Positions 30,995 through 50,546 of a DNA stretch of 64,000 nucleotides are shown piece after piece. The stretch's first letter is position 1, and each line of letters opens with the position of its first letter. Location of the stretch: the NCBI RefSeq assembly GCF_004519335.1, contig NZ_SOZD01000003.1:434001-498000 (forward strand), given 5' to 3'. The DNA is from Jiella endophytica. GTDB taxonomy: Bacteria; Pseudomonadota; Alphaproteobacteria; Rhizobiales; Rhizobiaceae. A model generated the notes under the pieces. It was not told the DNA's origin. It did no database searches and was given only the letters and a program-made list of their open reading frames with translations. The position numbers and the translations under genes were made by a program.

Positions 30995-31665
30995 AGGATC
31001 CGCATCCTCGCCCGAAAGGCCAGCCGCCCGATCAGCGCCAGAGCCAGCGTCGCGGCGAAGGTGATGACCACGTAGAACACCGCGACGAGGGAGAAGATCT
31101 CCACCGAGCGGAACGTCTCGGCATTGACGTTGAAGGCGCGACCGGTCAGCTCCTCGACGCCGAAGACGGCGGCCATGGACGTGCCGAGGGTCATCAGGAT
31201 GTACTGGTTGGCCAGCGGCGGAAACAGCACCTTGGCGATATGCGGCAGGATCACGTAGCGGATCTGCTGCCAGCGCGAGAAGCCGAGCACCTCGGCCGCC
31301 TCCATCTCCGTCTGGCGCCGCGACAGGAAGCCGGCGCGCTGGATCTCGGTGAGATACGCCCCGGCATTCAGCGTCATGCCGATCAGCACCGCCTGATACG
31401 AGCTGAGCAGGATGCCGGCGTCCGGCAGTGCGAAATAGAGGAAATAGATCTGGACGAGCTGCGGCGTGTTGGTGAAGGCCGTGACATAAACCTTCACCAG
31501 GACCCGCAGCGGCCGCGGCCCGAAAGCTGTGACCGATGCGAAACCGGTCCCGATGACGAGACCGCCGCAGAACGAAAGGAAGGCGATCTGCAACGACAAC
31601 AGCGCGCCGCCGGCAAAGTAGCCGAGATAGGGCAGCACCTGCCCATATTGCAGCGTGTAGTTCAT
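30991..31665 (-). CDS. Polar amino-acid-type ABC transporter permease (first)
   Basis: A 224-residue permease. The ATG at 31665 (MNYTLQYGQVLPYLGYFAGG) is chosen because the protein then begins as the family does; an upstream in-frame extension would run into the receptor gene. Motifs: VTAFTNTPQLVQIYFLYFALPD and an EAA loop (ETEMEAAEVLGFSRWQQI is partly visible as MEAAEVLGFSRWQQIRYVIL). It pairs with the next permease to form the channel. Confidence 0.93.
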   Translation of the reverse strand: MNYTLQYGQVLPYLGYFAGGALLSLQIAFLSFCGGLVIGTGFASVTAFGPRPLRVLVKVYVTAFTNTPQLVQIYFLYFALPDAGILLSSYQAVLIGMTLNAGAYLTEIQRAGFLSRRQTEMEAAEVLGFSRWQQIRYVILPHIAKVLFPPLANQYILMTLGTSMAAVFGVEELTGRAFNVNAETFRSVEIFSLVAVFYVVITFAATLALALIGRLAFRARMRIL

Positions 31666-31733
31666 CGCCTGCGCATCGCCCTGGTCGCTTTCACCGTGAC
31701 GGAACGGACAGACCGTCCCGTCGCCCGGCTGCC

Positions 31734-32543
31734 TCAGAAATACGGGTTCAGCGGGATCGGATAGGTCATGTCGAGGCCGAACCACTTCTTCCACAATTCG
31801 CCCCGCTTGCCGGAGCGCTCGAGCTCGAAGGCGGCGATGTCGAGCCAGTCCTTCAGCGAGGAATTGCCCTTGGCAACGCCCATGCAGTCATAGTCGACAT
31901 CGACGGGCATCGAGGTCACCTGCCATTCGACGCCGGTGTAGGTCTTGGTATAGGAGCCGAGATAGTCGACGACGTCGATGATCGTGTTGCCGCGGCCCTG
32001 CGCCAGCGCGCGCACCGCATCCGGATAGTTGTCGAGCAGGGTCAGCTGCGCCTTCGGCAGCGTCTCCTTGATGAAGCTGACGGGCGTCGTGCCGCGCACC
32101 TCGACGAGCTTGGTGTCCGGCGTATTGAGTTCGTTCCAGCTCTTCGGCTTGGTGCCACCGGTCTGCAGGACGCTGAGGCCCTCGGTATAAACCGGCACCG
32201 TGAAGTCGATGACCTTGGCGCGCTCGGAATTGCGGGTCATGCCGCCGAGGACGAAGTCGACGCGGTCCGAGGTGACGAAGGGGATGCGGTCGGGCGAACC
32301 GACCGACACGACTTCGAGCTTCACCCCCAGCTTGTCGGCGATCTCCTTCGCATATTCGACGTCGAAGCCGGAGATCTCGTTCTTGTCGTCATAGGTCCCG
32401 AGCGGCGGCAGCGTCGGGTTCACGCCGACCCGGATGCTTCCCGACTTGATGATGGCGTCGAGGCTGCGGGCCTCGGAGGGCGGGGCGGCGAGCAGCGCGG
32501 TGGCCAGAAACCCCGCGGCTGCGACCCAGGCGGACTTCAGCAT
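31734..32543 (-). CDS. Periplasmic amino-acid-type substrate-binding protein
   Basis: A 269-residue receptor with signal peptide (MLKSAWVAAAGFLATALLAAPPSEA-RS). SBP_bac_3 features: IIKSGSIRVGVNPTLPPLG, FVLGGMTRNSERAKVIDFTVPVY and VRGTTPVSFIKETLP. First gene of the operon, 68 bp before the first permease. The 293 bp upstream carry two adjacent perfect palindromes (32621-32638) likely to be operators. The ligand is probably an amino acid or an imino/hydroxy acid, given the DapA-family and amine-oxidase-like genes encoded divergently. Confidence 0.93.
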   Translation of the reverse strand: MLKSAWVAAAGFLATALLAAPPSEARSLDAIIKSGSIRVGVNPTLPPLGTYDDKNEISGFDVEYAKEIADKLGVKLEVVSVGSPDRIPFVTSDRVDFVLGGMTRNSERAKVIDFTVPVYTEGLSVLQTGGTKPKSWNELNTPDTKLVEVRGTTPVSFIKETLPKAQLTLLDNYPDAVRALAQGRGNTIIDVVDYLGSYTKTYTGVEWQVTSMPVDVDYDCMGVAKGNSSLKDWLDIAAFELERSGKRGELWKKWFGLDMTYPIPLNPYF

Positions 32544-32620
32544 GTCGATCGATCCTTTGCTCGAGGGAGATGTCGGGCGTCTTCAAGGCGGTTCCCGTCG
32601 GCGACGAGCTTGCACCGACT

Positions 32621-32638
32621 GTCTATAGACTGTATACA
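32621..32638. promoter_or_regulatory. Tandem palindromes upstream of the ABC operon (GntR site candidates)
   Basis: GTCTATAGAC (32621-32630) is a perfect 10-bp palindrome directly followed by TGTATACA (32631-32638), a perfect 8-bp palindrome. They lie 78-95 bp before the receptor start in the divergent region shared with the DapA-family gene. TGTATACA recurs (one mismatch) before gntR. Confidence 0.5.
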
Positions 32639-32836
32639 AAATTGCGACTTGTAAAGCGGGATATCCGAGTTTCCATCGCAACGCACATACCCCCTTCCTC
32701 ACCCATTCCGGCTGCTGTCGGCATTCCGGTGCAGCGCCAGGGGCGGCGGCCGGCGGCCTGACGCGGGCCGCCGCGAAAGGGGATGGTGCCGCGGAAAGAC
32801 TGGTGCGATCCGAGCATATCGAACGACAGGAAGACA

Positions 32837-33772
32837 GTGCCCACACAGCCCATCCGAGAGCGCCTCAGGGGAATCCACGCCGCGACCGTCACCCCGCTGA
32901 CGGCGGCCTTCGCCGTGGACGAGGCGGCGCTTGCCGACCATGTCGCGCCGCTCGCGAGAACCCCCGGCATCCGCGGTCTGCTTGTCAACGGTCATGCGGG
33001 CGAGAATTTCACGCTGCCACGCGGCGAAAAGGCCAAGGCACTCGGCATCGTGCGCGAAACGGTCCCCGCCGACTGCCTGATCGTCGCCGGGGTCAACGCC
33101 GAATCGAGCCTCGATGCCGCCGACCAGGCGCGGGACGCCGAAGCCATGGGCGCCGATGCGATCCTGGTGTTTCCGCCGAACAGCTGGGCGCTCACCCAGG
33201 ACCCGGACGTGATCCTCGCCCATCACCGGATCGTCGAGACCGCGACCGGCCTGCCGATCCTGCTCTACCAGGCGCCGGTCGGCGCCGGGCGAATGGCCTA
33301 TGCCAAAGGGGTGATCGAGGCGCTGATCGCCTCGCCGCGGGTCGTCGGGGTGAAGGAAGGCAGCTGGGAAATCGCCACCTATGAGGAGAACGCCCGGCTG
33401 ATCCGCGCGCGCCGCCCGGACATCGCCGTGCTCGGTTCGGGCGACGAGCATCTCCTGACGAGCTATCTGATCGGCACCGACGGCAGCCAAGTGAGCCTTG
33501 CGGCCGTGGTGCCGGAGCAGATCGTCGCGCTCTTCGCGGCGGCGGAGGCACAGGATTGGGCGCGCGCCCGGGCTGTCCACGAGGCGCTCTATCCCCTCGC
33601 CGCGGCCGTCTATCGCCGTGCGCCGACCGGACGGGCGACCGCGCGGCTGAAGACCTGCCTGAAGCTGCTCGGGCGGCTGGCGAGCGACCGGGTCTGCCCG
33701 CCGATGGTCTCGCCCTCGCCGGCCGAAATCGCCGAACTCGAGGCGGCGCTCGCCGTCGCCCGAGCCGCTTGA
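32837..33772 (+). CDS. DapA/N-acetylneuraminate-lyase-family aldolase (DHDPS-like)
   Basis: A 311-residue TIM-barrel protein read from GTG at 32837, which has AGGA six bases upstream; an ATG at 32783 would add a non-homologous tail. It has the Schiff-base lysine in VVGVKEGSWE (about residue 173), the catalytic tyrosine in LLYQAPVGAG and a GVNAESSLDAADQA strand. The family includes dihydrodipicolinate synthase and many aldolases or dehydratases acting on keto acids. Housekeeping DHDPS has a different phosphate/keto-acid loop (GTTGE); here it is NGHAGE, so a catabolic lyase is more likely. First of three genes on this strand. Confidence 0.92.
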   Translation: MPTQPIRERLRGIHAATVTPLTAAFAVDEAALADHVAPLARTPGIRGLLVNGHAGENFTLPRGEKAKALGIVRETVPADCLIVAGVNAESSLDAADQARDAEAMGADAILVFPPNSWALTQDPDVILAHHRIVETATGLPILLYQAPVGAGRMAYAKGVIEALIASPRVVGVKEGSWEIATYEENARLIRARRPDIAVLGSGDEHLLTSYLIGTDGSQVSLAAVVPEQIVALFAAAEAQDWARARAVHEALYPLAAAVYRRAPTGRATARLKTCLKLLGRLASDRVCPPMVSPSPAEIAELEAALAVARAA

Positions 33773-33806
33773 AGCGCGCCCGGCCGTTCCGATCCGCCGT
33801 TGCAGC

Positions 33807-33833
33807 GCCGCTTGCCTGAGGCGGGCAAGCGGC
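33807..33833 (+). other. Intergenic hairpin after the DapA-family gene
   Basis: GCCGCTTGCC (33807-33816) and GGCAAGCGGC (33824-33833) form a 10-bp perfect stem with a 7-nt loop, 34 nt after the stop, in the 168-bp gap before the DUF3830 gene. No U-tract; possibly attenuating or stabilising. Confidence 0.5.
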
Positions 33834-33940
33834 AGCGCCTGCGCCAAAACGGTTGCCGCCTGCTTCCGGAGGGCTGAGAGACGGGTTTCGGCCGCTTCCG
33901 GGCTCCCAACGATTCGATTGCATCGACATAGGACCACGAC

Positions 33941-34363
33941 ATGACCAAGCTCAAGATCACCGCCGGCCCGTTCACCTTCGACGCACGGCTGGAGACCGAA
34001 AAGGCGCCGCAGACCTGCGCGGCCTTCCAGAAGGTGCTGCCCTTCGAAAGTCAGATCGTCCATGTCCGCTGGAGCGGCGAAGGCGTCTGGATCCCGCTCG
34101 GCGACACCGACTTTTCCGTCGGCTACGAGAACCACACGAGCTACCCGGCGCCGGGCCAGATCATCCTCTATCCCGGCGGCATCAGCGAAACCGAGATCCT
34201 GCTCGCCTATGGCGGCGTGCACTTCGCCTCGAAGATGGGCCAGCTCGCCGGCAATCATTTCATCACCCTGACCTCCGATCTCGACAAGCTCGCCGAACTC
34301 GGCCCCTACGTCCTCTACAAGGGTGCCCAGCCGATCCGCTTCGAACTCGCCGAAGCGGCCTGA
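33941..34363 (+). CDS. DUF3830 family protein (cyclophilin-like fold)
   Basis: A 140-residue cytosolic protein with the DUF3830 pattern: FTFDARLETEKAPQTCAAF, HVRWSGEGVWIPLGD, YENHTSYPAPGQIILYPGGISETEILLAYG and GNHFITLT. The family has a cyclophilin-like barrel and no defined enzyme activity that I know of; members commonly sit beside amino-acid ABC transporters and dihydropyrimidinase- or aldolase-type enzymes. The FAD oxidoreductase gene begins 5 bp downstream. Confidence 0.85.
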   Translation: MTKLKITAGPFTFDARLETEKAPQTCAAFQKVLPFESQIVHVRWSGEGVWIPLGDTDFSVGYENHTSYPAPGQIILYPGGISETEILLAYGGVHFASKMGQLAGNHFITLTSDLDKLAELGPYVLYKGAQPIRFELAEAA

Positions 34364-35925: not shown

Positions 35926-38900
35926 TCAGAAGTCGTAGCGGATGCCGGCGACGCCCTTGTAGTTCTGGTAGTCGTCCTCGCCGAACTGGGCGTTGAACTT
36001 GGCAAAGCCGCTGGCGCCGGTCTCGCCGGTCTTCATCAGGTTCACCCCGGCCGACACCTCGCCGATGGTCTGGTCGATCTTCTCCGCCGCGACCACCTCG
36101 AGGCCGTTGCTGACCACCTTGGCGGTGTTGTCGCCGAGGAACTCCTGCCAGACGCTGACACCGAGGAACGGTTCGACCCGGACGCTGGCGGCGTCGAAGG
36201 AGGTCCCGACCCGCAGGCCGAGACGGCCGCGCAGGCTCTCGCCGTCGTCGAACGCGACGGTCTCGCCGAAGATGCCGAGGTCGTCGATGTTGCTGCTGAC
36301 ATAGGACAAGGTCGCGCCGGGCTCGATGAAGACGTTGCCGGCGAGCGCGTAGCGATAGCCCGCGTCGATCGTGGCGCCGACGGAGGTGAAGTCGGTGTCC
36401 TGATCCTCGACGAAGATGCCCGAGACCGACTTGTAGTTCGCCGTACCGATCTGGGCGATCAGCGCCGCGTCGACGAAAAGGCCGCCATTCAGATAGTTGG
36501 CATAGGCGCCGACGACACCGGCATCGTACTCGACCTCGGTCTGCGACCCGTCGAAGGTGAGGTCGGAGTTCACATAGCCGCCGAGCGCACCGAGGACGAA
36601 GCTGCCCTCGCCCGCCTGCCAGGCCGTGTCGACACCGCCGAGGAAGCCGTAGGTGTCCTGGTCCTTCCGGATGTCGAAGGCGAGGTTCTTGTTGAGGAGG
36701 ACGAATTCCTGCCTCTGATCGCTGTGCCGGGTGGAGGCGCCGAGCGCCTTCGCCCAGATCCCCGGCCCGCTCGACGTCACCGGGCATGCAGGGTCCTTCA
36801 GACCGCTCACGCAGGGTTCGCCGAGGGCGCCGCGAAGATCGGCGGTGCGGTCCTGCCAGACGCCGGCAGTGTCGTGCCACATCTGCTGGGCGCCGGTGAC
36901 GATCCCCGGCAGTTCGAAGAAGGTCTGGTTCGGCGCGCTCGCCAGCACCCAGTCCTTGTTCGCCTCGTCGAGGAAGATGTCGAAGCTGAACAGACCCTTG
37001 TCGATCGGCCCGCCATTCAGCACGAAGGCGTCGTCGTCGGTCTGATCGAGGAAGCTCGCAAAGATCACGCCTTGCGGATTGAAGCCGGCCGGCACGTCGG
37101 CGAGGAGGTCGTTGACGTTAACGCCGGTGGTCTCGCGGAAGTTCTCGGCGGTGAGGAGATCGGCAAGATCGGCGCCGCTTTCATCGCCGAGTTCGGCATC
37201 GATGGCCAGCGTGCTGTCGGCGCTGTCAGCCGCGCCGACGAAGTCGCCATCGATATTGGTGGTGCCGAAGGCGCCGTCACCGAGCTGCATGTTGAGCAGG
37301 CCGCCGGCATTGTTGAAGGTCTCGAGGCCGAAGAAGTTGGTGACTTCGAAGGCGTTGACGACGCCGGTATTGTTGACCACGTCCTCGTCGCCGCCGAAGA
37401 GGTTGTCGCCGCCGACATTCCACAGGCCGCTGTTGTCGAGGGTCGCGCCGTCGGCGGCGTTGAGCTCGACATTGCCGATCAGGATGCCGGCGTTGTCGAA
37501 GGTGATGTCGGCACCCGTCGAGGACGCGAAGACGACCCGCTCGAAGACCCCTGCGATGGCCTCCTGATCGGCGACATTGGTCTGGATGAGACCGGTGTTG
37601 TCGATGGCGACCGCGCCCTCGGCATCGGCTTCGATGGCGATGTCGCCCTGGATCAGCGCAGTGCCGGCCTCCGTCGAGAGGTTTGCGATGGCGATGGTCC
37701 CGCCCGCTTCGGCATGAACGCCGACACGCCCGCCCTTGACCGTGGCGGTGTTGGCGACGGCGACGTTGCCGAGGGCGGCAGATGCGTCGATGCCGGCCTC
37801 GAGGCCGTCGATGGATCCGTCATTCGTCACGGCGACGTTGCCGGTGCCGTTCGCGGAGGCGAGGACGCCGTTTTCCGCGCCTTCGATCGTCGCGCCGGCA
37901 AGGTTGTCGATCGCGACGTTGCCAGCTCCGTCGGATTCGGCGTCGATGCCGTTGCCGAGCGCGGTGATCGTGCCGGCATTGGCCGCGGCGACGTTGCCGT
38001 CGCCATTGGCGTCGAGCTCGAAGCCGTTGTCGCCGGCATCGATGGTCGCTCCGGCAAGATTGGCGACGATGAGGTCGCCGATGCCGTCGGTCGCAGCGTC
38101 GATGCCGTCTGCGCCAGCGAGGATCGTGCCGGCATTGGTCGCCGTCACGGCGCCGTCGCCATTGGCATCCGCCTCGATGCCGTCCGCACCGGCATCGATG
38201 ACGGCGCCGGCGAGGTTTTCGGCGACGATGTCACCGGCACCGTCCGTTGCGAGATCCATCCCGTCGTCACCGGCGAGGATCGTGCCGGCATTGGTCGCCG
38301 CTACGCTGCCGTCGCCGTTGGCATCCGCCTCGATGCCGTCTCCATCGACATCGATGACCGCGCCGGCGAGGTTTTCGGCGACGATGTCACCGTCACCGTC
38401 CGTTGCGAGATCCATCCCGTCGTCACCGGCGAGGATCGTGCCGGCATTGGTCGCCGCTACGCTGCCGTCGCCGTTGGCATCCGCCTCGATGCCATCTCCC
38501 TCGACATCGATGACCGCGCCGGCGAGGTTTTCGGCGACGATGTCACCGTCACCGTCCGTTGCGAGATCCATCCCGTCGTCACCGGCGAGGATGGTGCCGG
38601 CATTGGTCGCCGCTACGCTGCCGTCGCCAGTCGCCTCAGCCACGATACCGTCCCCACCGGCGTCGATGAGCGCGGCGGCAAGGTTGTCGGCGATGATGTT
38701 GCCGGCTCCGGACGTCGCCGCGTTGATGCCGTCGCTGCCGGCGGTGATCGACCCGCCATTCGTCGCGGTGACGGTTCCGTCGACGGCGCTGCCGCGCAGG
38801 CCGACCAGCCCTGCAACGATGAAGCCGCCGTCCTCGTTTTCGATCGTCACCGCCCCGAAGCCACCGGTCGCTGCGGCGATGCCATCGCTGTCGGCGGTGA

Positions 38901-41900
38901 TCAGGCCGCCGGCGAAATTCGTCGCGGTGACGTTGCCGGCCGTGCCGCGAAGATCCATGCCGTTCGCGCCGACGTCGATCTCGCCGCGGTTCTCCGCCAC
39001 GATCTCGCCGGCGCCTGCGGCCTCGGCATCGATGCCGTTGTTGGCGGCAAGGACGGTGCCGGCGTTCGTCGCTGTGATGTTGCCGTTGCCATTGGCTCCG
39101 AGCTCGAAGCCGTTGTCTCCGGCATCGATCGTCGCCCCGGCGAGGTTGTCGGCAACGATATTGCCGGCACCCGCGGTCTCGGCGTCGATGCCGTCCGCGC
39201 CGGCGACGATGGTGCCGGCATTGGCCGCCGTCACGCTGCCTTCGCCATTGGCGTCGAGCTCGAAACCGTCGCTTCCGGCCTCGATCGTCGCCCCGGCGAG
39301 GTTGTCGGCGACGATATTGCCGGCACCCTCGGTCTCGGCGTCGACGCCGTCAATGCCGGCGAGGACCGTGCCGGCATTGGTCGCGGAAACGTTGCCGTCG
39401 CCATTGGCATCGAGCTCGAAGCCGTTGTCGTCGACATCCATCGTCGCGCCGGCAAGGTTGGTGGCGGTCACATCGCCATTGCCGTTTGTCGCGGCGTCGA
39501 TGCCGTCGTCACCGGCGAGGATCGTGCCCGCATTGGTGGCCGTCACGGCGCCGTCGCCACTGGCATCGGCCTCGATCCCGTAACCATCGGCGTCGATGAC
39601 GGCCCCGGCAAGATTGTCCGCGACGATGTCGCCGTCTTCCGAGGACAGGTCCATGCCGTCGTCGCCGGCCTCGATCGTGCCGGCATTCGTCGCCGTGACA
39701 GTGCCGTCATTGGCCGCATCGCCGACGAGGCCGTCGCCGCCCGCCGTGATGGTCTGGTCGGGATCGTTCTGGACGATGACGTCGCCATCGGTGGATGCGG
39801 CGTCGATGCCATTGCCGCCGGCCGTGATCGTTCCGGCATTGATCGCCGTGACGTCGCCGCCGGCATCCACCGTGATGCCGTTGTCGTCGGCCTCGATGGT
39901 GGCGCCGTCGAGATTTTCGGCGATCACGTCGCCACTGACGGTCGAAAGCACCATGCCGTCGTTGCCTGCGAGGATCGTGCCGGCGTTCGCCGTCCTGACG
40001 TCGCCGCCGTCGGTGCCGAGCGCAAAGCCGTTGCCGTCGGCATCGATCAGCGCTTCGGCGAGATTCATCGCGACGATGTCGCCGGCTTCCGTATCCGCAT
40101 TGATCCCGTCTTCGCCGGCAAGAATCGTCCCCGCATTCGCAGCCGTGATCGCGCCGTTGCCGGAGACATCGGCCTCGATGCCGTTGTCGTCGGCGTCGAT
40201 GACGCCCCCGGCGACGTTCTCGGCGACGATGTCGCCGTCGACGGAGGAGAGATCCATGCCGTCGTCGCCAGCGGTGATCGTGCCGGCATTGGTGGCGGTT
40301 ACGGTGCCGTCGGCCGCCGCGTCCGCCACGATGCCGTCGCCGCCGGCGTCGATCGTGTCGCCGGCATTGTTCACGGCGACGATGTCGCCGCCGGCCGCTG
40401 ACAGATCCATGCCGTCCGCTTCGGCGGTGATTGTACCGTCATTCGTGGCGGTGACGTTGCCGGTGCCGGTCGCATCCGCATGGATACCGTCTTCGTCGGC
40501 CTGGATCCGGGCATGGGAGAGGTTCTTGGCGACGATGTCGCCGGCGCCGGCCGTCGCGAGATTCATGCCGTTGTTGCCAGCATAGATCGTGCCGTCATTC
40601 GCCGCGGTCACCTGGCCGGCGCCATTGGCCGAAAGATCGAAGCCGTCGCCGCCGACATCAATCAGCGAGCCGCGCAGATTGTCCGCGGTGATCGAGCCGT
40701 CGCCGAGGGTCAGAGCGAAGATGCCGTCGTCGCCGGCATTAATCGTTCCCTCGTTGGCGGCGATGATCTTGCCGTCGCCGGTGGTCTGAAGGTTGAAGCC
40801 GTCACCGCCGGCATCGAACTGGCCGGCGTTGATGGTGGCGCCGGCAAAGTTCGTCGCGGTGAGATTGCCGTCGACGCTCGCTGCGGTGGCGCCGTTGGCC
40901 CCGGCATTGATCGTGCCGGCATTGGTGACGATCGCGGTTCCGGCGCCGGTGGTGGTCGCCAGCATGCCGTCCGCCGTCGTCGAGGCGAGCGTCCCACCGT
41001 CGAGGTTGCGCGCCGCGACATTGCCGCCGGCCGCAGTCGCGACCATGCCCTCGGCATTGGCATTGACGGTGCCGCCATTGCCGAGCTGGACGTTGCCGAG
41101 CCCGATGGCGGTGGCGTCGATGCCGCGATTGGCGTTGGAGGTAATGGTGCCGCCGGAGGCGTTCGTCACCGTGATGTTGCCGTCGACGGAGTCGGCGACG
41201 ATGCCCGTGTCGAAACTCGTGATCAGGCCACCATTGGTCGCCGTGATGATGCCCGCGGCGGTGACGCCGAGGTCGAAGCCGTTGCCGGTGGTCGCGAAGA
41301 TCGATCCGCCCGAAAGGTTGTTGGCGGAAATGTTGCCGCCGCCGATGGCGTCCGCTTCGATGCCGCTGTCGGCCGCGGTGATCGTGCCGCCGTTCACCGC
41401 CGAGATGATGCCGGTGCCGACCGTCGTCAGCTTGAAGCCGTCGCCACCGGCGTTCTGCTGGCCGGCGGTGATCGTGCCGCCTGCCAGATTCGTGGCGGTG
41501 ATGTTGCCATTGCCGTTGGCGACGGCTTCGACGCCGTTGTCGCCGGCGATGATGACGCCGCCATTGGTGGCGGAGATCAGGCCGTTGCCGGCGCTCACCG
41601 CCTCGATGCCGTCGTCGGCGGCGTTGATCGTGCCCTGATTGCTGGCAATGACATTGCCGTTGCCGCCGGCCGAAAGCTGGAAGCCGTCGCCGGTCGCATT
41701 GGCCTGACCCGCATTGATCACGCCGCCCTGGAGCTGGGCGACCGAGACGCTGCCGTCGCCGAGCGTCACCGCCCTGACGCCGGATGCACCGGCGGTGACC
41801 GAACCGGCGGTGGTGACGGTGACGCTGCCGGCCCCGGCGGCGGCCAGGTCGAAGCCGTCGCCGTTCACATTGGCCTGGCCGGCATTGATCGTCGCGCCCT

Positions 41901-43311
41901 GGAGATGGTTGACCGAAATATTGCCGTCGACGCTTACCGCATTGACGCCGTCGTCGGCGGCAAGGATCGTCCCGCCATTGGTGACGGTGACGAGCCCGGC
42001 CGCGGCCGCCGACAGCGACAGGCCGTCGCCGTCGACATTGTTCTGGCCGGCGGTGATCTGGCCGCCGAGATATTGCGTGACGGAAACGTTGCCGCCGCCG
42101 GTCGCCGCGGCGTTGACGCCGGCCGCCGCCGCGGTGATCGCGCCGCCGGAATTGACGGTGACGCTGCCGGTCCCGTTGGTCGTCAGCTGCATCCCGTCGC
42201 CGGTCGCATTGGTCTGGCCGGCATTGATCGTGCCGCCCTGGAGATGGGTGATGGTGATGTTGCCGTCAGCAGCGACGGCATCGATGCCGTCGTCGGCCGC
42301 GGTGATGGCTCCGCCATTGATGGCGGTCACGGTGCCTGCCGCTTCGGTCTGCAGCTGCAGGCCGTCGCCGTCGATGCTGTTGAGGCCGGCGACGATGTCG
42401 GCGCCGAGGAGCTGCGAGAAGTAGACGTTGCCGCCCCCGGCGACGGCGATGACGCCCTCGCCGCCGGCGCTGATCGAGCCGCCGTTGAGCGCGGTGATGT
42501 TGCCGGCCCCCGCGGCCCGCAGCTCCATGCCGTCCTCACCTGCGGTGATGGCGCCGCCGGCAAGGTTGTTGGCGAGGATGTTGCCGTCGACCGCCGAGAG
42601 ATCCATGCCGTCCTCGCCGGCGGTGATCGTGCCGGCATTGGTGGCGGTGACATTGCCGGCACTCTGCGCAGCCGCGGCAATGCCGTCGCCGCCGACCGTG
42701 ATGGTATCGCCCGCCCCGTTGTCGACGACGACGTCGCCGGCGGCCGCGGCGAGCGCCATGCCGTTGCCGGCGGCGGTGATCGCGCCTCCATTGTTCGCCG
42801 TGACGTTGCCGGCACCGAGGGCGCTGGCATCGATGCCGTCCTCGCCGAGGCTGGCGTCGAGCGTCCCGGCATTCGTCGCGGTGATCGCGCCATCTCCGGT
42901 CGCAACGAGGCTGAAGCCGTCCGCGCCGGCCGTGACCGTGGCGCCGGTGCCGTTGGTGACGGTGATGTTGGCGGTTTCGCTGGTGGTCAGCGCGACGCCG
43001 TCACCGGCGCCCTCGACGGTCGAACCGGCGGCCGTGTCGAGGAAGATCTCGCCGTTCGACTGGACGTTGAAGGCGTCGCCCTGATTGAGATTGAGGTCGA
43101 GATTCTGCACCGTCGCATTGGCGAGAACGTCGATGTCGAAGGTCAGGTTCGCATCCGCATTGACGTCGGCGAAGCCGTCGAGATCCTGGGCGTCGCAGTC
43201 AACGTCGATGATGGCGCCATTGTCGTTCCGCACACAATCCGCCAGGGCAGGCGAAGCGAAAACGGCAGCAATGGCGAGCGCGCTGGCGCTCGCGAAGAAT
43301 GTCCTGGCCAT
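35926..43311 (-). CDS. Giant autotransporter built from 52- to 56-residue passenger repeats
   Basis: A 2461-residue secreted surface protein. Signal peptide MARTFFASASALAIAAVFASPALA (cleavage before DC). The passenger (about residues 25-2150) is almost entirely tandem repeats. The N-terminal part has units of about 56 residues (INAGQ.N..GDGF.L motif); the C-terminal part has units of 52 residues made of two 26-residue halves (ATNAGTILAGDDGMDL / ENLAGAVIDVDGDGIEA). This regularity suggests a long beta-helix. Residues about 1560-1700 are three almost identical 156-bp units. The passenger is Asp/Gly/Asn-rich with two early cysteines and a Cys pair just before the barrel. The last 280 or so residues form an autotransporter beta-domain (GPGIWAKALG, GFLGGVDTAWQ, ending GVAGIRYDF with terminal Phe). 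A LuxR gene lies directly upstream. Likely roles are adhesion, aggregation or biofilm. Confidence 0.93.
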   Translation of the reverse strand: MARTFFASASALAIAAVFASPALADCVRNDNGAIIDVDCDAQDLDGFADVNADANLTFDIDVLANATVQNLDLNLNQGDAFNVQSNGEIFLDTAAGSTVEGAGDGVALTTSETANITVTNGTGATVTAGADGFSLVATGDGAITATNAGTLDASLGEDGIDASALGAGNVTANNGGAITAAGNGMALAAAAGDVVVDNGAGDTITVGGDGIAAAAQSAGNVTATNAGTITAGEDGMDLSAVDGNILANNLAGGAITAGEDGMELRAAGAGNITALNGGSISAGGEGVIAVAGGGNVYFSQLLGADIVAGLNSIDGDGLQLQTEAAGTVTAINGGAITAADDGIDAVAADGNITITHLQGGTINAGQTNATGDGMQLTTNGTGSVTVNSGGAITAAAAGVNAAATGGGNVSVTQYLGGQITAGQNNVDGDGLSLSAAAAGLVTVTNGGTILAADDGVNAVSVDGNISVNHLQGATINAGQANVNGDGFDLAAAGAGSVTVTTAGSVTAGASGVRAVTLGDGSVSVAQLQGGVINAGQANATGDGFQLSAGGNGNVIASNQGTINAADDGIEAVSAGNGLISATNGGVIIAGDNGVEAVANGNGNITATNLAGGTITAGQQNAGGDGFKLTTVGTGIISAVNGGTITAADSGIEADAIGGGNISANNLSGGSIFATTGNGFDLGVTAAGIITATNGGLITSFDTGIVADSVDGNITVTNASGGTITSNANRGIDATAIGLGNVQLGNGGTVNANAEGMVATAAGGNVAARNLDGGTLASTTADGMLATTTGAGTAIVTNAGTINAGANGATAASVDGNLTATNFAGATINAGQFDAGGDGFNLQTTGDGKIIAANEGTINAGDDGIFALTLGDGSITADNLRGSLIDVGGDGFDLSANGAGQVTAANDGTIYAGNNGMNLATAGAGDIVAKNLSHARIQADEDGIHADATGTGNVTATNDGTITAEADGMDLSAAGGDIVAVNNAGDTIDAGGDGIVADAAADGTVTATNAGTITAGDDGMDLSSVDGDIVAENVAGGVIDADDNGIEADVSGNGAITAANAGTILAGEDGINADTEAGDIVAMNLAEALIDADGNGFALGTDGGDVRTANAGTILAGNDGMVLSTVSGDVIAENLDGATIEADDNGITVDAGGDVTAINAGTITAGGNGIDAASTDGDVIVQNDPDQTITAGGDGLVGDAANDGTVTATNAGTIEAGDDGMDLSSEDGDIVADNLAGAVIDADGYGIEADASGDGAVTATNAGTILAGDDGIDAATNGNGDVTATNLAGATMDVDDNGFELDANGDGNVSATNAGTVLAGIDGVDAETEGAGNIVADNLAGATIEAGSDGFELDANGEGSVTAANAGTIVAGADGIDAETAGAGNIVADNLAGATIDAGDNGFELGANGNGNITATNAGTVLAANNGIDAEAAGAGEIVAENRGEIDVGANGMDLRGTAGNVTATNFAGGLITADSDGIAAATGGFGAVTIENEDGGFIVAGLVGLRGSAVDGTVTATNGGSITAGSDGINAATSGAGNIIADNLAAALIDAGGDGIVAEATGDGSVAATNAGTILAGDDGMDLATDGDGDIVAENLAGAVIDVEGDGIEADANGDGSVAATNAGTILAGDDGMDLATDGDGDIVAENLAGAVIDVDGDGIEADANGDGSVAATNAGTILAGDDGMDLATDGAGDIVAENLAGAVIDAGADGIEADANGDGAVTATNAGTILAGADGIDAATDGIGDLIVANLAGATIDAGDNGFELDANGDGNVAAANAGTITALGNGIDAESDGAGNVAIDNLAGATIEGAENGVLASANGTGNVAVTNDGSIDGLEAGIDASAALGNVAVANTATVKGGRVGVHAEAGGTIAIANLSTEAGTALIQGDIAIEADAEGAVAIDNTGLIQTNVADQEAIAGVFERVVFASSTGADITFDNAGILIGNVELNAADGATLDNSGLWNVGGDNLFGGDEDVVNNTGVVNAFEVTNFFGLETFNNAGGLLNMQLGDGAFGTTNIDGDFVGAADSADSTLAIDAELGDESGADLADLLTAENFRETTGVNVNDLLADVPAGFNPQGVIFASFLDQTDDDAFVLNGGPIDKGLFSFDIFLDEANKDWVLASAPNQTFFELPGIVTGAQQMWHDTAGVWQDRTADLRGALGEPCVSGLKDPACPVTSSGPGIWAKALGASTRHSDQRQEFVLLNKNLAFDIRKDQDTYGFLGGVDTAWQAGEGSFVLGALGGYVNSDLTFDGSQTEVEYDAGVVGAYANYLNGGLFVDAALIAQIGTANYKSVSGIFVEDQDTDFTSVGATIDAGYRYALAGNVFIEPGATLSYVSSNIDDLGIFGETVAFDDGESLRGRLGLRVGTSFDAASVRVEPFLGVSVWQEFLGDNTAKVVSNGLEVVAAEKIDQTIGEVSAGVNLMKTGETGASGFAKFNAQFGEDDYQNYKGVAGIRYDF
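38206..38633 (-). repeat. Near-identical 156-bp tandem repeats in the autotransporter
   Basis: The same sequence recurs with a period of exactly 156 bp: GAGATCCATC occurs at 38251, 38407 and 38563, with only a few base differences between units. Each unit encodes 52 residues. Neighbouring units are much more diverged, so this block looks recently duplicated and could vary in copy number between strains. Confidence 0.9.
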
Positions 43312-43395
43312 AGTGATCCCCTCTCTTGGCGACCGGACGTTACTTTTGCTGCCGATTTCCCGCTTCAGAGGAACCTATGACAAACTGACCGTAAG

Positions 43396-43437: not shown

Positions 43438-44631
43438 TTACAATTTTGCACCATGTAGTGGCGGCGCGAGCCGGTGCATCAGGGCGACCAGTTCGCTCTG
43501 GCGGGAAACGCCCGTCTTGCCGAAGATCCGGGTGAGATGGGTGCGGATCGTTCCCTCGCTGATGCCGAGCGCCTTGGCCGCCTCGATCGAGCTCTGGCCG
43601 CTGGCGAGAGCCTCGGCGACACGTTGCTCGGCGGCCGTCAGCTCATAGACCCGGGCGAGGAGCTGGGCCCTCGGCCCGCCGGACTGTTCGCTGGCATCCG
43701 AAGTGAGAAGAACGGCAGCGGCGGCGACATCCTCGGGATGATGCTTCACGCCATCATTGATCAGCGGCAGGACGTGGGCGACCGCAAAGCCGGTCTCGAT
43801 GCTGCCGAGAATGACGGAGGTGTCGGGATTGTCCTTCGGCGACGCTGCGGCCGACCGGATGGCCGCGATCAGCGCATCCCCCTGCCGGGGGCGGACGGCG
43901 CCGAGGCGGCCTTCCCGCTCGTGAATGAACCGCGGATGGGCGAAGTGGCTTCGCGCCGCCTTGTTCGCCTCGAGGATCGCGCCGGTGCGGGTTACGAGGA
44001 TCGTCGGGGTCGACAGGTTGCGGACGATCGAGCGCAGGCCATGGGTCCAGGATTTCTGCATCTCGAACAGCCGCGACAGGGCGAGCGCCCGACTGAGATG
44101 CGGCTGCAGCAGCGTCGCCATGGCGATCTCGTCGTCGCCGAAGGGACCATGGCTCTCGCGCCGGCCGAAGCAGATCGCGCCGCTCCGCCCGTCGTCGGTC
44201 GCGAACGGGATCTGCATGATGTCGACGAGCCCCTGGGTCTTCAGCCAGTCGAGATGCGACGGGCTGTCGACGTAGCGCTCGCGCGGGACGTCGCGGGAGA
44301 GAAGCCGCGGCGTCGCGTGGGGCAGCGAGGCGAAGAGCTCGCTCGTCACCACCATGACCTCCCCCGGCCGCGACGGAGCGGCGGCGTCCGCGCCGTTGAT
44401 CCGGAAGCAGCGATGGAGCGCGATGGTCTGGGTGACGGGATCGAGGATGTAGAGAAAGGCGCAGGTGAAGCGTCCGCGCCGGCAGACCCTGTCGAGGGCG
44501 AGCCGCCATTTGCGCGGCGACGTTGCACAATCGTAGATCTCGGCGACGAGTTCGCCGAACTCGTCCGGGCGGAAGGCCGCGAAGGGTGCGGCGGGGCCGG
44601 CCTCGCCCGCGGAGGGGTCTTGGTTACGCAT
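43438..44631 (-). CDS. LuxR-type regulator with N-terminal sensory region
   Basis: A 397-residue protein. The C-terminal 65 residues are a LuxR helix-turn-helix (LTAAEQRVAEALASGQSS, EAAKALGISEGTIRTHLTRIFGKTGVSRQSELVALM). The N-terminal 330 residues contain a probable GAF-like region (FLYILDPVTQTIALHRCF, FATDDGRSGAICFGRRES) and a PAS-like segment (TPTILVTRTGAILEANKAARSHF); no receiver or autoinducer domain is recognisable. It lies 126 bp upstream of the giant autotransporter on the same strand and is its obvious candidate regulator. The ATG at 44631 is chosen; an in-frame GTG two codons earlier is possible. Confidence 0.9.
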   Translation of the reverse strand: MRNQDPSAGEAGPAAPFAAFRPDEFGELVAEIYDCATSPRKWRLALDRVCRRGRFTCAFLYILDPVTQTIALHRCFRINGADAAAPSRPGEVMVVTSELFASLPHATPRLLSRDVPRERYVDSPSHLDWLKTQGLVDIMQIPFATDDGRSGAICFGRRESHGPFGDDEIAMATLLQPHLSRALALSRLFEMQKSWTHGLRSIVRNLSTPTILVTRTGAILEANKAARSHFAHPRFIHEREGRLGAVRPRQGDALIAAIRSAAASPKDNPDTSVILGSIETGFAVAHVLPLINDGVKHHPEDVAAAAVLLTSDASEQSGGPRAQLLARVYELTAAEQRVAEALASGQSSIEAAKALGISEGTIRTHLTRIFGKTGVSRQSELVALMHRLAPPLHGAKL

Positions 44632-45196
44632 GGATACAGTCCAGAACAATCGGGGTTGCGTGCGCCGCTTCGAACCATCGCGACGACGGGGAGCCCCGTT
44701 TCCTCGGAAAGAGACCCGCGCCGCATTGCCGATGTAGCCAATCCGAACCGCCCGCCCGTGTGATCTGCAGCACTCTCCGGACGGTCCGGTCAGCCGCCGA
44801 CTGGAGGAGATCGGGTCGCTCCTATTAATACAACCATACTTTTTTGACAGCTCAAAGGAACCTCGGGTGCTGCGCATTCCATCCACTGAGATTGCAAAGG
44901 AAGGCCCCCGGCGGAGGCTCGATGACAATGTGCCGCATTCCCCGTAAAGCCTTCTCGCCGCAGCAGAGAAGACCGATCGGACGCCGACACCCAGCAGCAA
45001 AGATCGGCCCCACGGACAAGGCAGGGCCGCAAGGCCGATCGCGTGTCGTTGCAACCGGCCGGCGTCCCATCTTGCAAAGAGAGTTAAGAGGAGATGACCG
45101 CCTCCACCTCCAAAGGACCGGCGATTCTGCTACGGTCTTGTTCTGGCCATGCGTGGATGCTGGAAGTCACCGGACAGCTTTCTGGAGCACACGAAG
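44632..45196. other. Gene-free 565-bp intergenic region
   Basis: I see no supportable gene between luxR (minus) and the DUF1007 gene (plus). It contains an AT-rich island (44821-44860) with a minus-strand promoter candidate and a 13-bp palindrome CCGGAC-G-GTCCGG (44777-44789) that could be an operator. The rest shows nothing I can name. Confidence 0.6.
44827..44855 (-). promoter_or_regulatory. Promoter candidate for luxR
   Basis: On the minus strand TTGAGC (44850-44855) is followed after 17 bp by TGTATT (44827-44832), inside the only AT-rich stretch of the region. This would give a leader of about 190 nt. Confidence 0.3.
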
Positions 45197-45898
45197 ATGG
45201 CTCGACCATCCGGCCGCCGGACCGTTCCCTCGCCCGGCGCGCTTACCCTTGTTGCGATGGGTCTCGCCGTCGCTGCCATCGTTTTTCAGAGCCAGCCCGC
45301 GGCGGCCCATCCGCATGTCTTCGTGACCGCGTCAGTGCAGTTCGTCGGGGACGAGAACGGCGACCTCGCCGCGATCAGGAGCGGCTGGGTGTTCGACGAG
45401 ATGTTCTCGTCCTCGCTGCTCTTCGACTTCGACGAGAATGCCGACGGCAAGCTCGACGAGGAGGAACTGAACGCGGTGGCAGGCACGGTGCTTGGCTCGG
45501 CAAAGGACTATCAGTTCTTCACCTTCCTGAAGGAGGCCGGCGTGCCGGTGGAGCTGTCGCCGCCAGACCGGTTCCGCGCGCGCTTCGAGAAGGGCCACCT
45601 CGTCATCTTCACGCAGATGCATCCGGCGGCGCAGGTGAAGCTCGCCGGCGCTGAGCTGACGCTGTCGATCTACGATCCGAGCTACTACGTCTCCTTCGAC
45701 GTCGGCCGCAACGAACAGGTCGGGCTGACCGACCTTCCCGCCGCCTGCCGCGCGACGCTCGACGCCACCCATCCGGACGAGGGCGCGACTGCCTGGATGA
45801 AGCAGGTCGCCGGCCTCGGCAAGTCGCAGAGCATTCCTGCCGACGGCATAAACTATGCCGAACTCCTGTCGACGCGGATCGCCCTCGACTGCCGCTGA
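45197..45898 (+). CDS. DUF1007 family periplasmic protein
   Basis: A 233-residue protein with a signal peptide (ALTLVAMGLAVAAIVFQSQP, cleavage near AAA-HPH). The mature N-terminus HPHVFVTASVQFVGDENG is the DUF1007 hallmark. It contains an EF-hand-like acidic loop (DFDENADGKLDEEEL, about residues 75-89). DUF1007 proteins often accompany nickel/cobalt or other metal transporters and are thought to be accessory periplasmic proteins; none is adjacent here except the heme locus. The ATG at 45197 has GGAG nine bases upstream; an in-frame ATG at 45149 would only lengthen the signal region. Convergent with the heme receptor gene. Confidence 0.85.
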   Translation: MARPSGRRTVPSPGALTLVAMGLAVAAIVFQSQPAAAHPHVFVTASVQFVGDENGDLAAIRSGWVFDEMFSSSLLFDFDENADGKLDEEELNAVAGTVLGSAKDYQFFTFLKEAGVPVELSPPDRFRARFEKGHLVIFTQMHPAAQVKLAGAELTLSIYDPSYYVSFDVGRNEQVGLTDLPAACRATLDATHPDEGATAWMKQVAGLGKSQSIPADGINYAELLSTRIALDCR

Positions 45899-45910
45899 AC
45901 CCGTCATGCG

Positions 45911-45933
45911 GGATCCCTGCGATGGCAGGGTCC
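45911..45933. terminator. Hairpin between convergent DUF1007 and heme-receptor genes
   Basis: GGA(T)CCCTGC and GCAGGGTCC pair over 9 bp with one bulged T around a GATG loop. No T-run, but its position in the 48-bp gap between two stops suits a bidirectional terminator. Confidence 0.5.
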
Positions 45934-45946
45934 AGCCAGCGTAACG

Positions 45947-48172
45947 TCAGAACTGGTAGGTCACGGTCGCCCTGACGCTGCGCCCCGGCTCGGTGTAGTA
46001 GTCCTTCGGTCGGCTGGCGCTGTCGGGTATGTCGAGCGTGTCGTAATAGGTCTCGTCGAAGACGTTGTAGAGCCCGGCCTGAAGCTTCAGGTTCTCGACC
46101 TGCGTCGGCCGCCACCAGGCGGTCAAATCGACCAGCGCATAGCCCGGCGTCTCAGAGATCTCGTTCTCGACGTCGCGCCGCGCCGCGGCGAGGGTCAGAT
46201 AGGCGTCGGCGCCCCAGACGCCGTTGCCGTAGCCGAAGTTGAGGATGCCCTTGGCGGCGGGAATGGTGTTCAGATGCTCGTCGGTGTCGAGATCGCGGCC
46301 CTGGTAGCTCGCCAGCGACAGGGCGCTGTGCCAGACATCGGTCATCTGCCATTTCGCATTCGCCTCGATGCCGTAGATCTCGACATTCGCCCGGTTGAAG
46401 GAGCGGGTGATGCCGAACGGATAGTCGCCAGGGGAAAGGCCGACCTCCGAGGGATCGACGGATTCGGTGTCGATGAAGTTCTTGTATCGGTTGTAGAAGG
46501 CAGAGACGCCCCAGTCGAAACCGGCCTGTTCCGCCCGCAGACCGACCTCGTAGCCGTTGCTCGTCTCGGCCTCGAGATCGGGATTGCCGATGGAAAGATA
46601 GGTGCCGGGCCCGCCATAGCTGAGATAGAGCTCGGTCGCCGACGGGGCGCGGAAGCCCTGTGCCCACTGGGCATAGACCGTCGCCCGTTCGGTGACGTCG
46701 AACTCGGCCCGCAGCTTCGGCGAGACGGCGCTGTCGCTCGACGCATCCGGCAGGCCCCGATAGGTGGGGTTGAGGGTGAAGGCCTCGGTCTCCTGCGGGT
46801 TCTCTTCGTAGTAGTCGAAGCGCAGGCCCGGAGTGAGCCGGAACCGGTCGGTCAGCGAGATCTCGTCCTCGACGAACAGCCCGACGCTCGCGCCGTGGAC
46901 TTCGGGCATGTCGGCCTGGTTGGTGTGCAGGAAATTGCAGTTGTAATAGTACCAGTAGTAGTATGGCCCCGGCGGGCAGGTGTCCTCGCCGCTCGCCATC
47001 TGGCTGGTGCGGTTGCCGTAGACCTCGCCACCGAGGCTGAGCTTGTGGTCCAGCCCGGCAAGGTCGAAATGCTTCATGACGCTGCCGTTGACGCCGAAGG
47101 TCGTCTCCTCGATGTCGCTGAGGCGGGAATAGGCACCGGCCGGCTCTGACAGGCGCTCGCCGTCGAAATCCTCCGAAAGCTCCTGGCGCTGCCAGTAGAC
47201 GACCGCATCGGCAGCATCGAGCCAGGCATCGGCGCCCGCGCCGAGTTCGTAGTGTCCGGAGATCCTCTCGCGCTTTTCGACCTTGTCGCGGTAGGCCGAA
47301 CCCGCCTCATAGGTCGCAGTCGACGCCGAGAACTCGTCGATATTCTCGTCACGGTCGTAGATCTCGCCGGTAATGCCGAAGACCTGATCGACGCCGACAT
47401 GCTGGCGAAGCTTCACGAGCAGGTTCTTCCGGTCGTAGTCGAGCGGATCGGGCTCGCTTCTCTCGCTGCCATAGCCGCCGACATCGCCCCGGTTGTCGCG
47501 CTCCTCCCCGAAGCGATAGCCGCCTTCGAGAAGCATGTAGGTGTCGCCGAGCCTGGCCGCGAGCGCCTGGTCGATGCCGAAGCTCTGGTCCTCGCTGTTG
47601 TAGGTGCCGCGCGTCAGCCCGCCGAAGGTCTTGTCGCCGGGCAGCAGATCCTCCGGGTTCAGCGTGCGCACAGCGACGACGCCGCCAAGGGCCCCGGCGC
47701 CGAAGACGCTGGAATCGCTGCCCTTGACGATGTCGAGCGACGACAGCGTGTCGAAGTCGAAGGTCGTGCCGCCGCCGTTGACGCCGCGGGCGCCGTCGTC
47801 CAGCCAGGGCAGGCGAACGCCGTCGATGGTGGTCAGCACCCGATTGGAATCGAGCCCGCGAATGATGAAGCTGCCATTCAGCGCATTGTAGCCGACGCCG
47901 GGATCGATGCGGTCGATGTCCTGCGGATCGAAGACCTCGGCCGCGTCGAGTTCGGCGCGGGTGACGCGCTCGGTGAGCACGGTTTCGGCGCGGGTCGCGG
48001 TCTGGTTTTCCGGCGCATCGCCGTCGCCCTCCCCGCCGATATAGACCGGCTCGAGCAGGATCGAACCGTCGCCGGTGACGCTCGCCTGTTGAGCGTTTGC
48101 GGAAATTCCCAGTGCAAGTGAAATTGCAATGCCGGACGCAGCGCCGGCCAGGTGGCGCAGATGACGAGCCAT
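45947..48172 (-). CDS. hmuR: TonB-dependent heme receptor (HmuR/ShmR family)
   Basis: A 741-residue outer-membrane receptor with signal peptide (ending SANA-QQ). The plug domain contains IDRIDPGVGYNALNGSFIIRGLDSNRVLTTIDGVRLPW and VKGSDSSVFGAGALGGVVAVRT. A 22-strand barrel follows and ends VRATVTYQF with terminal Phe. Heme-receptor boxes FRAPSATELY (FRAP) and NPDLEAET (NPNL-like) are present; the histidine usually found between them is absent. The ATG at 48172 gives the normal signal sequence; a longer in-frame start does not. It is divergent from hemP-hmuTUV and shares an iron-responsive operator. It brings heme or hemoprotein-derived heme into the periplasm. Confidence 0.95.
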   Translation of the reverse strand: MARHLRHLAGAASGIAISLALGISANAQQASVTGDGSILLEPVYIGGEGDGDAPENQTATRAETVLTERVTRAELDAAEVFDPQDIDRIDPGVGYNALNGSFIIRGLDSNRVLTTIDGVRLPWLDDGARGVNGGGTTFDFDTLSSLDIVKGSDSSVFGAGALGGVVAVRTLNPEDLLPGDKTFGGLTRGTYNSEDQSFGIDQALAARLGDTYMLLEGGYRFGEERDNRGDVGGYGSERSEPDPLDYDRKNLLVKLRQHVGVDQVFGITGEIYDRDENIDEFSASTATYEAGSAYRDKVEKRERISGHYELGAGADAWLDAADAVVYWQRQELSEDFDGERLSEPAGAYSRLSDIEETTFGVNGSVMKHFDLAGLDHKLSLGGEVYGNRTSQMASGEDTCPPGPYYYWYYYNCNFLHTNQADMPEVHGASVGLFVEDEISLTDRFRLTPGLRFDYYEENPQETEAFTLNPTYRGLPDASSDSAVSPKLRAEFDVTERATVYAQWAQGFRAPSATELYLSYGGPGTYLSIGNPDLEAETSNGYEVGLRAEQAGFDWGVSAFYNRYKNFIDTESVDPSEVGLSPGDYPFGITRSFNRANVEIYGIEANAKWQMTDVWHSALSLASYQGRDLDTDEHLNTIPAAKGILNFGYGNGVWGADAYLTLAAARRDVENEISETPGYALVDLTAWWRPTQVENLKLQAGLYNVFDETYYDTLDIPDSASRPKDYYTEPGRSVRATVTYQF

Positions 48173-48310
48173 GACGAGTCCCCCTCGGTCGATGTGAGAT
48201 GACGGACCTGGCTGGCTTGCGCGATGCGCGCGGTCTGGCTTGCTAACGTCCCCGGATGGCGGCGGAACCCCCTTGGTCGTCGCCGCTGCCATTGACCTCC
48301 CTATTTAATA

Positions 48311-48325
48311 TGATAATCAGAGTCA
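48311..48325. promoter_or_regulatory. RirA-type iron-responsive operator (TGA-N9-TCA)
   Basis: TGATAATCAGAGTCA fits the TGA-N9-TCA iron-responsive operator known from rhizobial heme and siderophore genes. It lies in the AT-rich divergent region between hmuR and hemP and overlaps a minus-strand TTGACT that could be the hmuR -35; TTGACC (48292) is a plus-strand -35 candidate. Confidence 0.6.
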
Positions 48326-48370
48326 ACTTATATCACTCTGAAAACGCTAGAGAATTATAGGTCTTCTAAA

Positions 48371-48547: not shown

Positions 48548-48557
48548 AGCTCCCGCG

Positions 48558-50542: not shown

Positions 50543-50546
50543 CGCG

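What the first reader, a model, noticed from the sequence alone, without database searches (positions are those of the whole stretch)
35926..43311. 2461-residue autotransporter with a 52- to 56-residue modular passenger
The passenger is almost wholly repeats. The N-terminal part uses units of about 56 residues with an INAGQ.N..GDGF insert; the C-terminal part uses 52-residue units made of two 26-residue halves. This implies a long, regular, acidic beta-helix on the cell surface. I do not recognise a named adhesin with this unit. The two repeat classes suggest two zones of the fibre with different width or binding surface.
Basis: partly seen in the sequence, partly recalled or inferred. Interest (0 to 1): 0.75.

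Follow-up and report, generated by a model that had tools for sequence, protein, structure and literature searches.

The report
Giant beta-helix autotransporter, probable surface adhesin
The gene encodes a very large but otherwise ordinary type of self-exporting bacterial surface protein, predicted to be a rod of some 65 similar coils, about 30 nanometres long, that probably sticks the cell to something; the design is a known one, although no close match to this repeat turned up.

Summary
Window 35926-43311 (minus) is one 2461-residue frame: signal-peptide-like start, about 1700 residues of repeats, C-terminal autotransporter barrel (PF03797 114 bits, TIGR01414 128 bits, fold match to EspP/BrkA). 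The interpretation needs one correction. There are not two repeat classes: a single 25+27-residue two-coil unit parses residues 118-1827 as 65 coils. 'INAGQ.N..GDGF' is a five-residue loop added at one turn of the second coil, in 7 of 33 such coils (five consecutive, residues 274-555; two scattered), not throughout the N-terminal part. A prediction of residues 223-637 (mean pLDDT 94) gives a regular three-strand beta-helix with its six loops at the same turn. The other difference along the rod is charge: -7 per 100 residues before residue 851, -17 after. Barrel relatives occur in some same-family genomes and in Sphingomonadales, with other passenger sequences; nine genus-mates have no close counterpart. 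No passenger family matched, though composition filters weaken that test. Best reading: a new member of the classical (type Va) autotransporters, probably a cell-attached adhesin, ligand unknown. Ordinary in kind, unusual in length and regularity.

The parts
35926..43311 (-). complete gene, 2461-aa autotransporter
43240..43311 (-). signal-peptide-like N-terminus, residues 1-24 (cut site read by eye after A-L-A)
   Evidence: sequence read; no predictor run
43195..43236 (-). N-terminal cysteine pair, residues 26 and 39, the only cysteines before residue 2167; a pair at the corresponding place is seen in 7 of 7 relatives whose N-terminus was in the DNA read
37831..42960 (-). 65 regular beta-helix coils, residues 118-1827 (33 rows of a 25+27-residue A/B unit, one row a single coil)
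41647..42492 (-). five consecutive units with the 5-residue loop at the second turn, residues 274-555
41401..41496 (-). single coil with the loop, residues 606-637, at a slip of the A/B alternation
40762..40929 (-). isolated unit with the loop, residues 795-850
37831..40761 (-). strongly acidic, membrane-side part of the rod, residues 851-1827 (net -17 per 100 aa)
38143..38610 (-). three nearly identical units, residues 1568-1723 (DNA identity 0.98, 0.93, 0.91): recent tandem duplication
36928..37830 (-). irregular beta-rich end of the passenger and conserved linker, residues 1828-2128
36826..36927 (-). helical segment before the barrel, residues 2129-2162
35929..36762 (-). autotransporter beta-barrel, residues 2184-2461 (PF03797 match at residues 2216-2428)
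43438..45054 (-). upstream same-strand gene with a LuxR-type (GerE) DNA-binding domain; possible regulator, link unproven

Best explanation
A classical (type Va) autotransporter that carries itself to the cell surface and stays there as a long rod. Shown by sequence or prediction: signal-peptide-like start, 65 regular coils of a kind predicted to form a three-strand beta-helix, an irregular beta end, a helix and an autotransporter barrel. Inferred from general knowledge of the class: the Sec system takes it to the periplasm, the BAM complex inserts the barrel, the chain passes out through the barrel and folds coil by coil, giving a rod of about 31 nm for the regular part (65 coils at a recalled 0.48 nm each) with the N-terminus at the tip. 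The N-terminal cysteine pair probably closes the tip (inferred). Five units in a row in the tip-side third, plus two further coils, carry a short loop at the same turn, making a row of loops that is the best candidate for a ligand-binding patch; the membrane-side half is a uniform, strongly acidic shaft. Most likely function: adhesion to a surface, matrix or other cells. Ligand unknown.
For: Barrel: PF03797 114.2 bits against a cut-off of 26, TIGR01414 127.9 bits against 16, BrkA sequence match E 5.1e-8, fold matches to EspP, BrkA, EstA, NalP and AIDA-I translocators. Rod: pLDDT 94.4, pTM 0.91 for residues 223-637, 364 of 415 residues at 90 or more, three strands per coil. In 65 parsed coils the G of the second turn is present in 65, preceded by D or N in 57; Asn stands at the column next to the first turn in 58, comparable to the Asn ladder described for Pmps (PMC10715098, passages). 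The loop sits at the same turn in 6 of 6 loops inside the model. None of three short recalled motifs of protease, lipase or subtilase passengers occurs, and no enzyme family matched. Passengers of barrel relatives are periodic above every one of 200 shuffles in 8 of 10 cases.
Against: No experiment; adhesion rests on analogy. The C-terminal part of the rod was modelled poorly with the relatives' alignment (block means of pLDDT 29-56 over residues 1516-1715, 29-79 over the regular coils after that), so its regularity rests on sequence. Foldseek found no solved structure with E below 0.001 for the rod (best is pertactin, E 0.048), so handedness and width are not settled. A rod this acidic should repel copies of itself unless ions bridge it. 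Family scans may have missed passenger or enzyme domains through composition filters (searches missed even the barrel). Two of ten relatives with the same barrel (L021, L023) show no passenger periodicity above shuffles. The promoter scan found nothing upstream, but 0.1 sites were expected by chance, so this says little.
Confidence: 0.72

Rival explanations
1. A self-associating autotransporter of the Ag43 kind: rods on neighbouring cells zip together and clump the cells, helped by divalent ions that bridge the acidic stacks.
For: Beta-helix rod in one chain with a barrel, as in that group (group described in PMC9289746, passages). D or N stacked at the same turn in 57 of 65 coils could hold ions.
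Against: Net charge -17 per 100 residues in the membrane-side half disfavours direct rod-rod contact. Ag43 ranks sixteenth in the fold search, E 0.31. No ion site was tested.
Confidence: 0.15
2. A structural spacer or shield: the rod's job is length and negative charge, with no specific ligand.
For: Very uniform coils, recent in-frame duplications, almost no basic or aromatic residues, no close counterpart in genus-mates.
Against: Loops are kept at one turn with a shared motif in seven coils, which a pure spacer does not need.
Confidence: 0.1
3. A released enzyme or other secreted effector passenger.
For: Many autotransporter passengers are enzymes (general knowledge).
Against: No catalytic motif of three tried and no enzyme family found; no non-repeat stretch of domain size between residues 118 and 1827.
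Confidence: 0.03

Closest known systems
Classical (type Va) autotransporters with beta-helical passenger: pertactin, BrkA, UpaB, Ag43, AIDA-I
   Same: Signal-peptide-like start, beta-helical passenger, helix and C-terminal barrel; barrel fold and sequence match. UpaB also has a run of consecutive loops forming a groove that binds glycosaminoglycans and a ladder of charged or polar residues that binds fibronectin (PMC6488583, passages).
   Different: 65 regular coils with a fixed two-coil unit; no sequence relation of the passenger to solved members was detected; the loops here add only five residues.
Chlamydial Pmp proteins
   Same: Regular repeat rod with Asn ladder and loops leaving one face (PMC10715098: abstract, section 9, passages).
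   Different: The defining FxxN and GGA(I,V,L) pairs are lacking: 1 and 4 occurrences in residues 27-2128.
BmaC of Brucella, a very large monomeric autotransporter adhesin
   Same: Very large monomeric autotransporter (340 kDa, PMC7697752, passages).
   Different: BmaC is described with a pectin-lyase domain and PATR repeats; no Pfam match to either in the pieces scanned here, a weak test because of composition filters.
AutA, AutB, AutC of Rhizobium leguminosarum
   Same: Predicted autotransporters found by similarity to BrkA; BrkA is also the only PDB sequence match here (PMC2275737, passages).
   Different: 875-1290 residues; not compared directly with the window protein.
Unnamed barrel relatives in same-family and same-order genomes (L019-L023) and in Sphingomonadales (L029-L033)
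   Same: Conserved linker, helix and barrel (31-43% identity for the nine aligned); N-terminal cysteine pair in 7 of 7 read; passenger lag of 24-28 residues above all shuffles in 7 of 10.
   Different: Passenger sequences differ; the five Sphingomonadales ones add a polyproline stretch and a further tail.

Membership tests
Type Va autotransporter | C-terminal translocator barrel of the 12-strand type | tested here: met
   PF03797 and TIGR01414 above cut-off; fold match to EspP, BrkA, NalP; exact strand number not counted
Type Va autotransporter | N-terminal Sec signal peptide | tested here: inconclusive
   Typical n-, h- and c-regions read by eye; no predictor available
Type Va autotransporter | Passenger N-terminal to the barrel in the same chain, beta-helical | tested here: met
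   the C-terminal half only by sequence (low confidence)
Type Va autotransporter | Secretion of the passenger to the cell surface | not testable with these tools
   Needs fractionation or labelling
Self-associating autotransporter (Ag43 group) | Passenger-passenger contact that clumps cells | not testable with these tools
   Fold similarity weak
Chlamydial-type Pmp | Repeated FxxN and GGA(I,L,V) motifs | tested here: not met
   1 and 4 occurrences in residues 27-2128
BmaC-type adhesin | PATR repeats and pectin-lyase domain in the passenger | tested here: inconclusive
   No Pfam match in three pieces covering residues 1-2043, but composition filters may hide one
RTX adhesin | Arrays of the GGxGxDxUx nonapeptide (pattern recalled) | tested here: not met
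   1 occurrence in residues 27-2128

The most novel reading that the evidence does not exclude
The barrel, linker and N-terminal cysteine cap define an undescribed alphaproteobacterial subfamily of adhesins in which the two ends are conserved while the beta-helix rod between them is rapidly rebuilt by coil duplication, and in this member a short comb of loops towards the tip is the binding site on an otherwise acidic, ion-stabilised shaft.
Probability: 0.3. Interest if true: 0.45.

Novelty: new member of a known kind. Interest (0 to 1): 0.27.

Why it matters
It adds an unusually long and regular rod to the known beta-helical autotransporters and shows a clean case in which one two-coil unit, plus a five-residue loop at one turn, gives the appearance of two repeat classes. 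That makes it a convenient natural system for asking how loop position and charge on a beta-helix rod set binding. It does not change what is known about how such proteins work.

Tried and rejected
Two separate repeat families: rejected, one circular 52-column A/B profile fits residues 118-1827. Whole-protein Pfam and NCBIfam scans gave no hit although the C-terminal piece alone scores far above the cut-offs; I infer an effect of the biased composition on the search filters, which I did not test. Antisense gene: the plus-strand frame has one stop in 2462 codons of the interval and holds ORFs of 1225 and 966 aa, but GC at the third positions of the minus-strand gene is 0.864 and all domain evidence is on the minus strand, so I treat them as by-products. 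Passenger residues 1258-1880 against plasmid records: no match at 1e-5. Two-unit profile against PDB sequences: one weak match, IceA2, E 0.0076, not followed. PHROGs: one weak unnamed family, E 0.0031, not followed. Viral fold library: one entry at E 3.4e-4 with TM-score 0.18; many of the other 49 rows listed are tail spikes or pectate-lyase-type proteins with weak scores. The first alignment meant for structure prediction (A4) aligned overlapping slices on themselves and was dropped. Linking the LuxR-type neighbour to the autotransporter: a similar gene was detected in 1 of 11 relative loci (L029; L021 and L028 are the same contig; flanks of limited length), so unproven. Paper searches for autotransporters with an OmpA-like tail: 0 papers and 2 papers, seen as listings only, neither of which by title and abstract start describes this arrangement. 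Terminator scan downstream: none found.

Full report
What is there. The minus-strand frame 35926-43311 is open for 2461 residues from an ATG to its stop. It starts with a signal-peptide-like stretch ending in A-L-A (read by eye), followed by a cysteine pair at residues 26 and 39. Its C-terminal piece matches the autotransporter barrel: PF03797 at 114.2 bits with a cut-off of 26 (117.1 bits in the genome search), TIGR01414 at 127.9 bits with a cut-off of 16, and the solved BrkA barrel at E 5.1e-8. A structure prediction of residues 1516-2461, with six relatives' sequences in the alignment, gave long barrel strands (block means of pLDDT 68-94) and a helical segment before them, residues 2129-2162. 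Its best fold matches are autotransporter translocators: EspP, AaaA, EstA, BrkA, Hbp, AIDA-I, NalP. In the same model the regular coils had low confidence: block means 29-56 over residues 1516-1715 and 29-79 over the rest of them.

The repeats. Identity at lag 52 over residues 1-2041 is 0.266 and at lag 25 0.192; the highest value at any lag from 10 to 139 in 200 shuffles was 0.142. I fitted a circular profile seeded with ten clean units of 51-52 residues and let it parse residues 101-1990. Residues 118-1827 fall into 33 rows, of which one (606-637) is a single coil: 65 coils in all. The part nearest the N-terminus, 118-273, lacks it. A few rows have other extra stretches of 1-2 residues, and the A/B alternation slips near residues 556-637 and 1414-1515. 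The 113-residue period in the N-terminal part corresponds to two such units.

Structure of the rod. Residues 223-637, aligned with four other stretches and one shorter stretch of the same protein (A6, six rows), were predicted at mean pLDDT 94.4 and pTM 0.91, with 364 of 415 residues at 90 or above. A coil has strands of 4, 5 and 5 residues (exceptions at the ends of the model); the first turn is 2 residues in coil A and 4 in coil B, the second 4 or, with the insert, 9-10, the third 4-5. All six loops in the modelled part lie at the second turn. Across 65 coils the glycine of that turn is present in 65, with D or N before it in 57; the Asn next to the first turn is present in 58. Foldseek against the PDB found nothing at E below 0.001; the top match is pertactin at E 0.048, and most of the 50 rows listed are, to my knowledge, right-handed beta-helices. 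I therefore call it a three-strand beta-helix; right-handedness is inferred, because I had no coordinates and the second-look aligner was not available.

Charge. Residues 27-1900 hold 257 D+E and 16 K+R, no tryptophan and one cysteine. Residues 118-850 carry a net -7.0 per 100 residues, residues 851-1827 -17.0. In an autotransporter the C-terminal end is the membrane side (general knowledge), so the loop-bearing, less charged part lies towards the tip. Loops and charge, not two repeat classes, are the differences along the rod.

Recent history. Units at residues 1568, 1620 and 1672 are 91-98% identical in DNA, whereas the other 33 pairs among the nine units compared are 64-85% identical. The rod has thus grown recently by tandem duplication.

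Relatives. In 61 genomes (own and 60 relatives) 10 had a match to the 418-residue C-terminal piece at E 1e-3 or better; of the nine genus-mates, one of them 84% complete, seven had none and two only weak partial ones, E 1e-5 and 2.4e-5. With a six-sequence profile one of these two, G008, matches better (E 3.5e-25, part of the barrel, a 1219-residue frame), so genus-mates can have more distant autotransporters. In that search 35 of 199 genomes of the family sample matched at E 1e-20 or better, of which 10 (own and profile members included) at 1e-70 or better. A ten-sequence profile matched 2 of 385 genomes of the class sample at 1e-50, own included. A scan of named genome contigs gave six relatives: a Mesorhizobium MAG, two Novosphingobium MAGs, Croceicoccus estronivorus, a Sphingomonadales MAG and an Altererythrobacter. 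Of ten relatives tested, eight have a passenger periodicity above every one of 200 shuffles, seven of them at a lag of 24-28 residues; L021 and L023 show none. The window's own two-unit profile matches 10 of 199 family genomes (own included) at 1e-5 and only the own genome among 385 of the class sample at 1e-7; residues 1258-1880 match no plasmid record at 1e-5. Inside the own genome the 21 matches all lie in this gene. So the ends of the protein are shared, and the rod in this form appears special to this lineage.

Neighbourhood. Upstream on the same strand is a 538-residue protein with a LuxR-type DNA-binding domain; it matches only the own genome among the ten of the genus at E 1e-20. The next block is a TonB-dependent receptor (Pfam) and genes that I read as hemin uptake (names recalled, not searched). 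The receptor matches in 9 of 10 genomes of the genus, own included. Four genus-mate stretches were fetched. In the three that reach about 10 kb beyond the receptor, the autotransporter, the regulator and the small gene between were not found at 1e-8; the fourth ends about 0.6 kb beyond the receptor and says nothing. The autotransporter therefore looks like accessory gene content. No tRNA was found in the window and G+C in 2-kb steps stays between 0.636 and 0.702, so neither measure marks a recent island.

Mechanism and standing. The parts are those of a classical type Va autotransporter, and no enzyme domain or motif was found, so a cell-attached adhesin is the most likely role. UpaB offers the best worked analogy: consecutive loops and extended strands there form a groove that binds glycosaminoglycans, and a ladder of charged or polar residues binds fibronectin (PMC6488583, passages read). 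Chlamydial Pmps also put loops on one face of a regular beta-helix (PMC10715098: abstract, section 9, passages). The present protein is not a Pmp (motifs lacking). It showed no match to the PATR or pectin-lyase domains given for BmaC (PMC7697752, passages; Pfam), but that scan may be blunted by composition filters: whole-protein scans missed even the barrel. A review notes a rhizobial autotransporter, AoaA, that affects legume symbiosis (PMC9289746, passages), so a role with a plant host is possible but nothing here points to it. The novelty is in length, regularity and lineage-specific sequence, not in kind.

Limits. Export, surface display and adhesion are untested. The membrane-side half of the rod is inferred from sequence. 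I looked for print on such proteins in seven searches of open-access papers and did not see this repeat described in the listings, which does not show that it is unpublished.

Noticed in passing
L029, L030, L031, L032, L033 (C-terminal ends of the ORFs): All five Sphingomonadales relatives carry 17-30 prolines in a row after the autotransporter barrel and then a further tail (116-117 residues; L030 is cut after 20 by the contig end); none of L019-L023 nor the window protein does. In L033, the only one scanned, the tail matches OmpA/Pal-type peptidoglycan-binding models below their curated cut-offs; the tails of the others look alike by eye. A classical autotransporter tied to the cell wall from inside would be unusual; searches listed no description.
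   Followed up: partly
window 43195-43236 and the N-termini of L019, L020, L021, L023, L030, L032, L033: A cysteine pair 8-15 positions apart just after the signal-peptide-like stretch in 8 of 8 proteins read, window included (L022, L029 and L031 lack an N-terminus in the DNA held). Not seen at that place in three other autotransporters of the same genome.
   Followed up: partly
window 36724-40401 and 40480-43380, plus strand: Long antisense open frames (1225 and 966 aa) opposite the repeat gene, probably a by-product of the G+C-rich repeats.
   Followed up: partly
window 43438-51380: TonB receptor with what I read as hemin-uptake genes (names recalled) is kept in the genus, while the autotransporter and the LuxR-type gene beside it are not found there.
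   Followed up: partly
window 29587-34363: What reads as an amino-acid-type ABC transporter (by eye), a dihydrodipicolinate-synthase-like gene and a DUF3830 protein (Pfam) side by side; perhaps a small uptake and breakdown cluster.
   Followed up: no
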